Shown piece after piece: positions 59,835 through 63,764 of a DNA stretch of 64,000 nt (position 1 is its first letter; every line of letters starts with the position of its first letter). The DNA is taken from positions 62,001-126,000 of the forward strand of contig PKYK01000023.1 of NCBI GenBank assembly GCA_003133665.1, written 5' to 3'. Under the pieces are notes generated by a model. The model did no database searches. It saw nothing but the letters and a program-made list of their open reading frames with translations, and was not told the origin of the DNA. The position numbers were made by a program, and so were the translations under genes. This DNA comes from Acidimicrobiaceae bacterium. Its GTDB lineage: Bacteria > Actinomycetota > Acidimicrobiia > Acidimicrobiales > RAAP-2.

Positions 59835-60661
59835 TGGACCGGCTCTTCACCACGCTGGCCCAGTGCATCAGCGATGAAGATCCCGTTGCCCTCGCCACGG
59901 TGATCGAACGGGCCGACGCCGTCGAGGGACAGAATCCGTCACTCCCGGAGCTGGGCGCGACACTGCTCGTCAGCCACGCCCACGGCGTTCAGGGATCACT
60001 CGGCCACGACAAGCTCGACGCCGTTGTCGCCGGCGACGTCAGTGCGGTGCTCTCGAGCGGCCGTAGCGTGGCTCGCCACTACGGCTCCGCGGGCGAATCT
60101 CGCCTCAACGACGTCACGGTGTTCATTGACGTCTTCGCACCGCCGCCGCGCATGATCATCTTCGGTGCCGTCGATTTCTCCGCGGCCCTCGTCCGGGTGG
60201 CGAAAATCCTCGGCTACCACGTCACGGTCTGTGACGCGCGCGAGGTCTTCGCCACCAAGCGACGCTTCCCCGAAGCAGACGAGGTGGTCGTGGCGTGGCC
60301 GAACGCCTATCTGGAGACGGTGGCCGACCGCCTCGGCGCGCTCGATGCAGTATGCGTTCTCACCCACGATCACAAATTCGACATTCCCGCCATCGTCGCG
60401 GCGCTCTCCACCAAGGTCGGATACCTTGGCGCCATGGGATCGCGCAAGACTCACGCGGAGCGTGTAAAACGGCTGATTGAGGCCGGTGCCGATCCATCTC
60501 GACTCAGCGAGATCATGGCGCCGATCGGCCTGGCCATCGGCGCTCGCACTCCCGAAGAGACGGCAGTGGCGATCTGCGCCGAGATCATCGCCCGTCGCGC
60601 CCACGCGGAGGTTCGCTCGCTGCGCGACGACACCGGACCAATCCATCGGGTGGCCTCGTGA
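59834..60661 (+). CDS. XdhC C-terminal (Rossmann) domain protein
   Basis: Protein of 275 aa. The N-terminal third is an XdhC-associated domain (HAHGVQGSLGHDKLDAVVAG). The Rossmann half shows MIIFGAVDFSAALVRVAKIL, VLTHDHKFDIPAIVAAL, GYLGAMGSRKTHAERVKRL and GLAIGARTPEETAVAI. It complements the preceding N-terminal-domain protein. Stop and the next GTG overlap (GTGA). Confidence 0.9.
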   Translation: MDRLFTTLAQCISDEDPVALATVIERADAVEGQNPSLPELGATLLVSHAHGVQGSLGHDKLDAVVAGDVSAVLSSGRSVARHYGSAGESRLNDVTVFIDVFAPPPRMIIFGAVDFSAALVRVAKILGYHVTVCDAREVFATKRRFPEADEVVVAWPNAYLETVADRLGALDAVCVLTHDHKFDIPAIVAALSTKVGYLGAMGSRKTHAERVKRLIEAGADPSRLSEIMAPIGLAIGARTPEETAVAICAEIIARRAHAEVRSLRDDTGPIHRVAS

Positions 60662-61170
60662 CGCTCCTGCCGCTCTCTCCGCCCCAGGTCGGTGACTGGA
60701 TCGGCGTCTCCGACCAGGCGCTGCCGGTTGACGAAGCGTGGAGGTGGGCGAGCCTTCCCCACTGCGGCGGCATCGTGACGTTCTGCGGCCTGGTGCGCGA
60801 CCACTCCGAAGATCGACCCGGGGTGACGTCCCTCGAGTACGAGGCCTACATCGAGCACGTCGTGCCGCGCCTCGCTGAAGTCGCCGATCAGGCACACGCA
60901 CGCTGGGGTGGGATCGGCCGACTCGTGCTGCTGCACCGTGTCGGCACGCTCAACGTTGGCGATGTTGCGGTGGTCGTCGCCGCGTCGACGCCCCATCGCT
61001 CCGAGTCGTTCGACGCAGCGAGGTTCTGCATCGACACGCTCAAGCACACCGTGCCCATCTGGAAGCACGAGACGTGGGAAGGAGGCTCCGACTGGAGTAC
61101 GTGCGCTCACGACGCGTCGCCCTTTGACGGCAGCATCCCCCCGCCGCCGCGACCCGTGCGATCCACCTAG
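60658..61170 (+). CDS. moaE: Molybdopterin synthase catalytic subunit
   Basis: Large subunit (170 aa) that transfers sulfur from MoaD thiocarboxylate to precursor Z. Marks: GGIVTFCGLVRDHSEDR, LEYEAYIEHVVPRLAEVAD, HRVGTLNVGDVAVVVAAS, HRSESFDAARFCIDTLK and VPIWKHETW. GTG 60658 overlaps the previous stop by 4 bp. Confidence 0.94.
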   Translation: MTLLPLSPPQVGDWIGVSDQALPVDEAWRWASLPHCGGIVTFCGLVRDHSEDRPGVTSLEYEAYIEHVVPRLAEVADQAHARWGGIGRLVLLHRVGTLNVGDVAVVVAASTPHRSESFDAARFCIDTLKHTVPIWKHETWEGGSDWSTCAHDASPFDGSIPPPPRPVRST

Positions 61171-61179
61171 GCAGTCGTG

Positions 61180-62448
61180 ATGATTCAATTGGCCCAAGCG
61201 CAGAGCATCGTGCTCGCGCAAGTCGCGCCGCTGCCCGTTGTCGAGACGCCGATCGATCTGGCGCTCGGCTGCGTCCTCGGCCAAACGGTCCGCGCCGTCA
61301 ACGACGTCCCGTCATTTCGGAACTCCTCGATGGACGGCTACGCGCTGCGAGCGGGCGACACGAAGGGCTCGCCCGTGACCCTGCGAGTCGTTGGATCCGT
61401 CAGCGCCGGACACCTCTTTGAGGGCACCCTTGGACCAGGCGACGCCGTACGAATCATGACGGGCGCACCGATCCCCGACGGCGCGGATGCGGTCTCGATG
61501 GTCGAGCTCTGCGAGGCGAATCACGACGACGGCACCGTGGTCGTCACGACCGAGGTCGCTCCGGGGAACTTCGTTCGCCAGCCCGGCTACGACGTATTGG
61601 CCGGCGACGTTCTCGCCGAGTCCGGCACCCCCCTTCGACCGGCCCACCTCGGCGTCCTCGGGGCCCAGGGGATCAGGATGGTTCCGGTGCACCGCCGACC
61701 GCGCCTCGGCGTGCTCTCGACGGGCGATGAGCTCTTCGTCGATGACGGGCCCCTCCCCCCGGGCAAGATCCGAGACGCCAATCGCCACTCGTTGCTCGGA
61801 CTCATCGGCGAGGAGGGCTGGGAGCCGGTCGACCTCGGTGTCGTCGGCGATGACCGGGAGGCGCTCCTCGACGCGTTTGCTCGAGCCGGCCAGTCGTGCG
61901 ACGCCCTCATCACCAGCGGCGGGGTCAGCGTCGGCGACTTCGACATCGTGCGCATCGTGCTCGACGACGTCAGTGGTAGTTCGATGCGCTGGATGCAGAT
62001 CGCCATTCGCCCGGCGAAACCATTCGCCTTCGGGACACTGGCCGAGACGAACCTTCCAGTCTTCGGACTCCCCGGGAATCCGGTGTCGGCCATGGTGAGC
62101 TTCGAGCTACTCGTGCGTCCGGCCATTCGGCGCATGGCGGGGCACACCAATCTGTCTCGGGCCGTGGTGAGCGCAACGTCCACGGTCGACCTGGCGAGGG
62201 TTCCCGACGGCAAGGTCCACTTCGTTCGGGGCCACGTGTCGCTCGACGGCGAGGGCCGCTACGTCGCCCGTCCCCTCGAGGACCAGGAGTCCCACCAGCT
62301 CAGCGCCATGTCCAACGCCAACGCCCTCCTGATCCTGCCCGATGGTGAGGGCGTAGGCCGGGGCGGCTCAGTCCGAGCACTACTGTTCTACCCAGCCGAT
62401 GTCACCGGGCTGAGTGATGACCTATCAGCCGGAGGGGCGGATCTATGA
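61180..62448 (+). CDS. moeA: Molybdopterin molybdotransferase
   Basis: MoeA of about 422 aa inserting molybdate into adenylated molybdopterin. Marks: VPSFRNSSMDGYALRAGD, IMTGAPIPDGADAVSMVE, VLSTGDELFVDDGPLPPGKI, SCDALITSGGVSVGDFDIV and FGLPGNPVSAMVSFELLV. ATG 61180 (or the adjacent GTG 61177). The stop overlaps moaA by 4 bp. Confidence 0.95.
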   Translation: MIQLAQAQSIVLAQVAPLPVVETPIDLALGCVLGQTVRAVNDVPSFRNSSMDGYALRAGDTKGSPVTLRVVGSVSAGHLFEGTLGPGDAVRIMTGAPIPDGADAVSMVELCEANHDDGTVVVTTEVAPGNFVRQPGYDVLAGDVLAESGTPLRPAHLGVLGAQGIRMVPVHRRPRLGVLSTGDELFVDDGPLPPGKIRDANRHSLLGLIGEEGWEPVDLGVVGDDREALLDAFARAGQSCDALITSGGVSVGDFDIVRIVLDDVSGSSMRWMQIAIRPAKPFAFGTLAETNLPVFGLPGNPVSAMVSFELLVRPAIRRMAGHTNLSRAVVSATSTVDLARVPDGKVHFVRGHVSLDGEGRYVARPLEDQESHQLSAMSNANALLILPDGEGVGRGGSVRALLFYPADVTGLSDDLSAGGADL

Positions 62449-63518
62449 CGACATCAGTACCCGTCGGCATCACTCCGAAGTCGCTACGGGCCATGGAGCC
62501 GGACAAGCTCGTGGTCCAGACCATGCCCACCAGCGGTCCTCTCGTCGACCGCTACGGCCGCGTCCACAATGATCTGCGGATCTCGGTAACCGATCGGTGC
62601 AACCTGCGTTGCGTCTACTGCATGCCCGAGGAGGGCATGACGTTCATGGAGCGCGACGAACTGTTGCGCTTCGACGAGATCCTTCGTTTCGCCGCGGTGG
62701 CCAAGGGCCTCGGGGTCGACGCCGTTCGTCTGACGGGCGGCGAGCCGCTCGTTCGAAAAGGACTGGTGTCCTTGGTGCAGGGCCTGAGCGATCTCGGCTT
62801 CGAGGACATCTCTCTCACCACCAACGGAACCGAGCTCGCGCGCCACGCGGGCAAGCTCGCCGCGGCCGGTCTACGACGAGTGAACATCAGCTGCGACTCG
62901 CTCATCCCGGGGCGCTTCGCCGCGATCCGCCGCCGGGCAACCCTCGACGTCGTGCTGAACGCCATGGACGCGGCAGAGCAGGCCGGCCTGCTGCCGCTGA
63001 AGATCAATGTGGTGCTCCTGCGAGGTCAGAACGACGACGAGATACTGTCGTTCGCCCAGTTCGCACGCGAAACCGGTCGCACCGTTCGCTTCATCGAATT
63101 CATGCCTCTCGATGCCCAAGGCGACTGGGATCGGGCGCAGTTGGTGCCGGGTCGCGAGGTCCACGACGTGATCTCGGCGCGCTGGGAGCTTGAGCCGATC
63201 GAGCGGTCCGCCAGCCCCGCGCCCGCCGAACGGTTCCGCTTCGTCGACGGGGCCGGTGAGATCGGCCTGATCTCGAGCGTCACCGAACCGTTCTGTGGCA
63301 CCTGCAACCGCCTCCGGCTCACCTCGGACGGCGCGATCCGCAACTGCCTGTTCTCCGACAGCGAGACAACCGTGCGCGATCTGCTGCGCAGCGGCGGATC
63401 CGACGACGCGATCGCGCACAGCCTTCGATCGGCGGTCTGGGGAAAATTCCCCGGACACGGTATCAACGAGCCGGGCTTCCTGTCGCCCCAGCGCTCCATG
63501 TCGATGATCGGCGGCTAG
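62445..63518 (+). CDS. moaA: GTP 3',8-cyclase
   Basis: Radical-SAM enzyme of 357 aa starting molybdopterin synthesis. N-terminal cluster: SVTDRCNLRCVYCMPEEG; RLTGGEPLVRKGL binds SAM; C-terminal cluster: FCGTCNRLRLTSDGAIRNCL. The protein ends in a Gly-Gly pair (SMIGG), required in MoaA. ATG 62445 overlaps the moeA stop. Confidence 0.96.
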   Translation: MTTSVPVGITPKSLRAMEPDKLVVQTMPTSGPLVDRYGRVHNDLRISVTDRCNLRCVYCMPEEGMTFMERDELLRFDEILRFAAVAKGLGVDAVRLTGGEPLVRKGLVSLVQGLSDLGFEDISLTTNGTELARHAGKLAAAGLRRVNISCDSLIPGRFAAIRRRATLDVVLNAMDAAEQAGLLPLKINVVLLRGQNDDEILSFAQFARETGRTVRFIEFMPLDAQGDWDRAQLVPGREVHDVISARWELEPIERSASPAPAERFRFVDGAGEIGLISSVTEPFCGTCNRLRLTSDGAIRNCLFSDSETTVRDLLRSGGSDDAIAHSLRSAVWGKFPGHGINEPGFLSPQRSMSMIGG

Positions 63519-63521
63519 AGC

Positions 63522-63764
63522 GTGGCTCGACTGCGGCTCTTCGGGCCGGCCCGCGAAGCCGCCGGCGTCTCCCAAGTCCTGCTCACCGGGCGCAGCGTCG
63601 GCGACGTCGTCGCAGCGGCCGAAGAACGCTTCGGCGCCGACTTCTCTCGCGTACTCGAGGTATCTCGCATCTGGGTCAACGGCGACGACGCTGGCCCCGA
63701 CACGCTCGTGAACGACAACGACGAGATCGCCGTCGTCCCGCCTGTCTCTGGCGGCTGCGCGTAG
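63522..63764 (+). CDS. moaD: MoaD-like sulfur carrier with GGCA C-terminus
   Basis: Ubiquitin-like sulfur carrier of 80 aa (ARLRLFGPAREAAGVSQ, VWVNGDD-like RIWVNGDDAGPDT, DNDEIAVVPPVSGG). MoaD normally ends exactly in GG, which is adenylated and thiocarboxylated. Here two residues, Cys-Ala, follow the GG before TAG, so the carrier would need trimming. GTG 63522 lies 3 bp after the moaA stop. Confidence 0.9.
   Translation: MARLRLFGPAREAAGVSQVLLTGRSVGDVVAAAEERFGADFSRVLEVSRIWVNGDDAGPDTLVNDNDEIAVVPPVSGGCA

What the first reader, a model, noticed from the sequence alone, without database searches (positions are those of the whole stretch)
63522..63764. MoaD ends in GGCA, not GG
Sulfur carriers such as QbsE end in GG plus two residues (GG-Cys-x) and are trimmed by a JAMM-type protease before activation. 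This MoaD-like protein has the same kind of tail, next to otherwise normal moaA/moaE/moeA. It suggests regulated activation of molybdopterin synthesis, or a second sulfur-transfer job.
Basis: partly seen in the sequence, partly recalled or inferred. Interest (0 to 1): 0.55.

Follow-up and report, generated by a model that had tools for sequence, protein, structure and literature searches.

The report
MoaD with a trimmed-off tail
A small protein that carries sulfur for making the molybdenum cofactor has two extra residues after its working end, most likely because its stop codon mutated and a protease that the cell already has for cysteine synthesis can cut the extra residues off.

Summary
In detail: the MoaD-like gene at 63522-63764 (+) ends Gly-Gly-Cys-Ala-stop. 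It is the only moaD-type gene found in this 86%-complete genome, in one row with its only moaE. The tail is young: the four closest orthologues (78-86% identical) read GGC GGC TGA where the window reads GGC GGC TGC GCG TAG, so a lost stop is the simplest reading. Tails are common: 106 of 220 MoaD genes sampled have residues after GG, from one residue to whole fused domains. The genome's one JAMM protease hit, Mec, lies on another contig near cysO and cysM; CysO there also ends GG-Ala-Arg. Best explanation: MoaD is made as a precursor and Mec (inferred) trims it to GG, so the stop codon can drift. In genomes at least 97% complete, tails occur in 76 of 119 with a JAMM and 0 of 14 without. Lineage confounds this, and a less complete set (12 of 29 JAMM-less genomes with tails) speaks against a strict rule. 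Regulated activation or a second sulfur job has no support here.

The parts
63522..63764 (+). moaD-like sulfur carrier, 80 aa, ends PPVSGG-CA
   Evidence: PF02597 over cut-off
63750..63755 (+). Gly-Gly codons (GGC GGC), expected mature C-terminus
   Evidence: the same in the four closest orthologues
63756..63764 (+). tail codons TGC GCG and stop TAG; the closest orthologues have TGA at 63756-63758
62445..63518 (+). moaA (GTP 3',8-cyclase)
   Evidence: TIGR02666 368 bits, over cut-off
61177..62448 (+). moeA-like molybdotransferase
   Evidence: TIGR00177 over cut-off; best full-length model PRK10680 under its cut-off
60658..61170 (+). moaE, catalytic subunit of molybdopterin synthase, only copy found
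   Evidence: PF02391 113 bits over cut-off, single match in genome
55303..59055 (-). CO-dehydrogenase/xanthine-dehydrogenase-type molybdoenzyme (large, 2Fe-2S and FAD subunits), a likely user of the cofactor
   Evidence: MoCoBD_1/2, Fer2_2, FAD_binding_5, CO_deh_flav_C

Best explanation
The window's moaD lost its TGA stop by one base change (TGA to TGC), so translation runs on to TAG two codons later and MoaD is made as a GG-Cys-Ala precursor. It still works because a protease removes whatever follows GG. The likeliest protease is the genome's single JAMM enzyme, Mec, which serves the cysteine pathway of the CysO carrier. In mycobacteria the bond that Mec cuts is GG-Cys on CysO, the same bond as GG-Cys in this MoaD. 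The freed GG is then adenylated by the rhodanese-ThiF enzyme and gives sulfur to MoaE. Shown here: the tail; the stop loss, by comparison with orthologues; one MoaD-type gene, one MoaE and one JAMM hit; the CysO tail; the wide spread of tails and fusions. Inferred: the trimming itself, and that Mec does it.
For: Four closest orthologues read GGC GGC TGA. Only moaD-type gene, only moaE hit, one rhodanese-ThiF enzyme (a second ThiF hit lies in a much larger protein) and one JAMM hit in the genome. JAMM residues E23 and HSHTHSEAYPSPTD present. The JAMM gene lies within 1 kb of cysO, with a DoxX-family gene between, and cysM follows cysO. This CysO ends GG-AR and matches the solved CysO 3dwg_C at 2.9e-24. 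Of 20 CysO read near mec, 14 have a tail; of 5 CysO beside cysM without mec in the fetched flanks (one family), none. MoaD has residues after GG in 106 of 220 genes, among them 14 MoaD-MoaE fusions of 18 long forms tested outside the class, where GG is internal and must be freed to function. In genomes at least 97% complete: 76 of 119 with a JAMM hit against 0 of 14 without, nominal p 2.5e-6; by family 31 of 46 against 0 of 7, p 0.0011. The first residue after GG is small (A, C, S, T, G) in 64 of 76, the second in 35 of 68. Precedents: MoaX is cut at Gly82-Ser83 (PMC4326299, passages); a Deinococcus JAMM cuts MoaD-MoaE (PMC8832034, passages); Mec hydrolyses CysO-cysteine (PMC3227635, passages).
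Against: Of 29 MoaD-bearing genomes without a JAMM hit in the less complete sets, 12 have a tailed or fused MoaD. Eight of the 12 have JAMM-bearing congeners and three more have JAMM-bearing families, so assembly gaps are likely but not proven. The twelfth, G408 (family f56), keeps cysO-cysM without mec and has a one-residue MoaD tail: a counterexample unless a JAMM is unassembled or too divergent (its relative G382 has a weak JAMM hit, 3.9e-5). JAB PF01398 gave 0 of 36, though it found only 2 of 14 control genomes. The tail-JAMM link is confounded by lineage and MoaD subfamily (PP[VI]SGG 66 of 100 against 0 of 3; PPFAGG 1 of 7 against 0 of 5), and in family f88 all 11 JAMM-bearing genomes end at GG. 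The tree-based test of independent pairs had 2 supported pairs and p 1. PF14464 counts any JAMM, not Mec alone. Nothing here shows cleavage.
Confidence: 0.55

Rival explanations
1. The tail is trimmed, but by another protease or a general carboxypeptidase, not by Mec.
For: Tails in genomes without a JAMM hit (12 of 29), above all G408, where no mec lies in the flanks of cysO-cysM. The MoaX protease was called unidentified in 2015 (PMC4326299, passages).
Against: The only JAMM hit in the window genome is Mec. In near-complete genomes no JAMM-less genome has a tail (0 of 14). The residue after GG is Ala, Ser or Cys in 59 of 76, in line with the cuts at GG-Cys and GG-Ser reported for CysO and MoaX.
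Confidence: 0.17
2. The tail is not removed. The gene is decaying or inactive, and another MoaD in the unassembled 14% of the genome does the work.
For: Close relatives G005, G028 and G050 each have two moaD hits. The second G028 copy has an in-frame stop (L082). Completeness is 85.8%.
Against: The body of the protein is intact and closely similar to its orthologues. It sits in a compact moaE-moeA-moaA-moaD row near a molybdoenzyme. Tail state changes at least 20 times on a quick tree of 133, so tails are tolerated.
Confidence: 0.14
3. Sequencing or assembly error turned TGA into TGC.
For: One base away from the orthologous stop; draft in 80 contigs; no reads could be examined.
Against: The same kind of tail occurs in 106 of 220 sampled genes, single-contig genomes such as G073 and G102 included.
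Confidence: 0.09
4. One reading: the tail is a conserved QbsE-like device for regulated activation or for a second sulfur-transfer job.
For: GG-Cys-x form; a JAMM exists.
Against: Absent in the closest orthologues, variable elsewhere, JAMM not linked to moaD, no partner gene for another sulfur product seen in the ORFs read beside it.
Confidence: 0.05

Closest known systems
MoaX, fused MoaD-MoaE of Mycobacterium tuberculosis (PMC4326299, passages)
   Same: MoaD GG is not terminal and must be cut (Gly82-Ser83) before the enzyme works; protease reported as unidentified
   Different: There the extension is the whole of MoaE; here two residues from a lost stop
Deinococcus MoaD-MoaE (DR2607) and its JAMM DR0402 (PMC8832034, passages)
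   Same: A bacterial JAMM cuts a MoaD precursor after glycine
   Different: Fusion to MoaE; the JAMM there was shown biochemically, here it is inferred
CysO-Mec-CysM cysteine pathway (PMC3227635, passages)
   Same: The window genome carries the three genes; Mec cuts after GG of a ThiS-fold carrier, GG-Cys being its known bond
   Different: Known substrate is the CysO-cysteine adduct, not a genetically encoded MoaD tail
QbsE with its JAMM (thioquinolobactin; the GG-Cys-x tail and its trimming are recalled, only a one-line mention of QbsE was seen in PMC3053476)
   Same: GG plus two residues, the first Cys
   Different: Different pathway; protease encoded with the carrier and tail functional there (recalled); here the tail is derived and not conserved

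Membership tests
MoaD, small subunit of molybdopterin synthase | ThiS/MoaD fold by profile | tested here: met
   PF02597 55.1 bits against 22.5
MoaD, small subunit of molybdopterin synthase | NCBIfam moaD equivalog TIGR01682 over its cut-off | tested here: not met
   36.5 bits against 66.15; so MoaD by fold and gene context, not by that curated cut-off. CysO and the threonine-synthase-linked carrier did not match TIGR01682 at all
MoaD, small subunit of molybdopterin synthase | Gene row with moaA, moaE, moeA; single moaE in genome | tested here: met
MoaD, small subunit of molybdopterin synthase | Gly-Gly at the very C-terminus of the encoded protein | tested here: not met
   ends GGCA; mature form unknown
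JAMM-matured sulfur carriers (QbsE type) | Residues after GG in the encoded protein | tested here: met
JAMM-matured sulfur carriers (QbsE type) | JAMM protease encoded in the genome with catalytic residues | tested here: met
JAMM-matured sulfur carriers (QbsE type) | JAMM encoded next to the carrier | tested here: not met
   The only hit lies on contig C78 near cysO-cysM; moaD is on C8
JAMM-matured sulfur carriers (QbsE type) | Tail conserved in orthologues | tested here: not met
   the four closest end at GG
JAMM-matured sulfur carriers (QbsE type) | Cleavage after GG by the JAMM | not testable with these tools
   needs protein work
CysO-Mec-CysM system (in the same genome) | mec, cysO and cysM close together on one strand; CysO-like carrier | tested here: met
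   L004: mec 421-819, DoxX-family gene 873-1412, cysO 1489-1770, cysM (PALP family) from 1770; CysO matches 3dwg_C

The most novel reading that the evidence does not exclude
In Actinomycetota with a Mec-type JAMM, MoaD is often a precursor: Mec is a shared maturase for CysO and MoaD, so the position of the moaD stop codon is under little constraint. It drifts by stop loss, moves into overlap with the next gene, or vanishes in fusions to MoaE or to a hydrophobic stretch of about 250 residues. Molybdenum cofactor synthesis would then depend on a cysteine-pathway protease.
Probability: 0.35. Interest if true: 0.6.

Novelty: new variant of a known kind. Interest (0 to 1): 0.4.

Why it matters
The protease that frees MoaD from a mycobacterial fusion was reported as unidentified in 2015 (PMC4326299, passages). 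Lineages in which MoaD carries tails of every length, in genomes with a JAMM, turn that into a direct test: does Mec free MoaD? If so, one enzyme ties cysteine synthesis to molybdenum cofactor synthesis. A 2006 gene-neighbourhood survey noted that JAMM (JAB) genes are absent from the molybdenum cofactor operons (PMC1779556, passages); a shared protease encoded elsewhere would explain that.

Tried and rejected
Idea that tails occur only where a JAMM is present, tested three ways. (1) Relatives, one row per locus: 26 of 76 loci in JAMM-positive genomes have tails, 0 of 6 in JAMM-negative ones. (2) 47 genomes without a JAMM hit: 43 from the class draw at 90% completeness or more plus G048, G060, G075 and G087 (G060 is 71% complete). 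29 of the 47 have MoaD, and 12 of the 29 have tails. The idea fails as a strict rule. (3) Phylum draw at 97% or more, chosen after seeing (2) so that missing contigs matter less: 76 of 119 against 0 of 14. Within subfamilies the contrast rests on few genomes, and the tree-based test lacks power. So: support, not proof.

Rows dropped before counts: L082 (in-frame stop) and L091 (contig end); the four CysO hits L092-L095 from the MoaD counts; second moaD copies; G000 itself from the 97% set (134 genomes matched, 133 counted); the second hit of G574.

JAMM-negative status of genomes not listed was inferred from their absence from the listed matches. G048 is probably a false negative: its CysO begins 398 bases from a contig start, where mec would be cut off (L132).

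Tail as part of a conserved motif: rejected (variable in length and letters). A JAMM beside moaD: rejected, the only hit is on another contig. Structure prediction was not run: a single-chain model cannot show cleavage.

Literature: eight searches listed no paper on short MoaD tails; subscription papers are largely missing from the library. MoaD-MoaE fusions are in print (PMC11237513, passages: 775 of 33957 bacterial genomes).

Full report
What is there. The ORF at 63522-63764 (+) encodes an 80-residue ThiS-family protein ending PPVSGGCA. It follows moaE, moeA and moaA on the same strand and lies near a CO-dehydrogenase/xanthine-dehydrogenase-type molybdoenzyme on the other strand. It is MoaD by fold and gene context; it does not reach NCBI's curated moaD cut-off (36.5 against 66.15 bits).

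The genome. The window lies in a 2.49-Mb draft of 80 contigs, 85.8% complete. The nearest named records are Acidimicrobiaceae metagenome genomes with isolate names bog_576, palsa_657 and fen_670. It holds four ThiS-family genes. MoaD ends GGCA, the ThiS-like gene ends AAAGG, the carrier beside threonine synthase ends AVAGG, and CysO ends AVAGG-AR. There is one moaE hit, one 403-residue enzyme with a rhodanese and a ThiF domain plus a second ThiF hit in a much larger protein, and one JAMM hit. The JAMM has E23 and HxH-x7-S-x2-D. It lies on the same strand as cysO and cysM, less than 1 kb before cysO, with a DoxX-family gene between, so I take it for Mec of the cysteine pathway.

Origin of the tail. 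The four closest orthologues (188 to 206 of 234 coding bases identical) all read GGC GGC TGA; the window reads GGC GGC TGC GCG TAG. A lost stop is the simplest history. Cys as first tail residue then needs no special cause, as TGC and TGT are one step from TGA. Even so, C (19), A (13) and S (8) lead 40 of 57 short tails (26 of these were copied by hand).

How common it is. Over 220 MoaD genes, one per genome, from three overlapping samplings, 106 have residues after GG. They include single residues, pairs such as CA, CR, AR, FR and YA, and long extensions. In the 97% set outside the class, 14 of 18 long forms are MoaD-MoaE fusions by profile, one of them MoaD-MoaE-MoaC; the other four are not. 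Inside the class 27 forms are long, most with a hydrophobic stretch of about 250 residues by eye. Pfam was run on 12 of the 27: CTP_transf_1 was over its cut-off in one (L072) and under it in two (L045, L064); the rest had nothing over a cut-off but ThiS. Tail state changes at least 20 times on a quick tree of 133 short proteins. Some tails bring the stop into overlap with a possible next start, for instance TGATG in L105 and L076 (by eye).

Is a JAMM behind it? For: of 20 CysO read near mec, 14 have tails, while 5 CysO of family f56 that lie beside cysM with no mec in the flanks all end at GG (one clade, so one event; one of the five genomes, G382, has a weak JAMM hit elsewhere). Among genomes at least 97% complete, tailed or fused MoaD is found in 76 of 119 with a JAMM hit and 0 of 14 without. 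The first residue after GG is small in 64 of 76. Against: 12 of 29 MoaD-bearing genomes without a JAMM hit in the less complete sets have tails, G408 among them; subfamily and lineage confound the contrast; all 11 JAMM-bearing genomes of family f88 end at GG; the independent-pairs test is powerless; JAB PF01398 gave 0 of 36, but it also misses most control genomes.

Mechanism. A MoaD with residues after GG cannot be adenylated at glycine (established chemistry of MoeB and MoaD). MoaX must be cut at Gly82-Ser83 to work, by a protease then unidentified (PMC4326299, passages), and MoaX did not complement E. coli (PMC3227635, passages). A JAMM of Deinococcus cuts MoaD-MoaE (PMC8832034, passages). 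Mec hydrolyses CysO-cysteine (PMC3227635), which is a GG-Cys bond. The best reading is therefore a MoaD precursor trimmed by Mec, with a stop codon that can drift. Trimming and the identity of the protease are inferred.

Verdict. The tail itself looks like a recent stop loss of a sort that is common in the phylum, not a conserved switch. What is worth keeping is the wider pattern and the test it offers.

Noticed in passing
L006 3421-4002 and 3906-4253 (-), outside the window, same contig: Two moaC-type genes in tandem downstream of moaD (PF01967, 119 and 132 bits), the second a shorter form near the contig end.
   Followed up: no
L177, L179, L180, L182, L184, L186-L188, L190, L195 and others: MoaD fused in frame to a roughly 250-residue hydrophobic stretch in several families of the class outside the window's order; the GG is internal.
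   Followed up: partly
L225 349-1548 (-): One chain with MoaD, MoaE and MoaC domains (ThiS, MoaE, MoaC all over cut-off).
   Followed up: no
L098-L100, L163, L165, L166, L169-L171: mec with no recognisable cysO in the stretch read (cysM present in seven of nine), in 9 genomes: what does Mec cut there?
   Followed up: no
L133-L136, L138: cysO-cysM without mec in the flanks in family f56; how the CysO-cysteine adduct is opened there is unknown.
   Followed up: partly
L172 1075-2286 (+): Carrier-activating enzyme with rhodanese at residues 35-124 and ThiF at 143-378; in the mycobacterial MoeZR described in PMC3227635 the rhodanese part is C-terminal.
   Followed up: partly
L082 374-601: Second moaD copy of relative G028 with an in-frame TAG near its start and PPICGG at the end, perhaps a decaying copy.
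   Followed up: no
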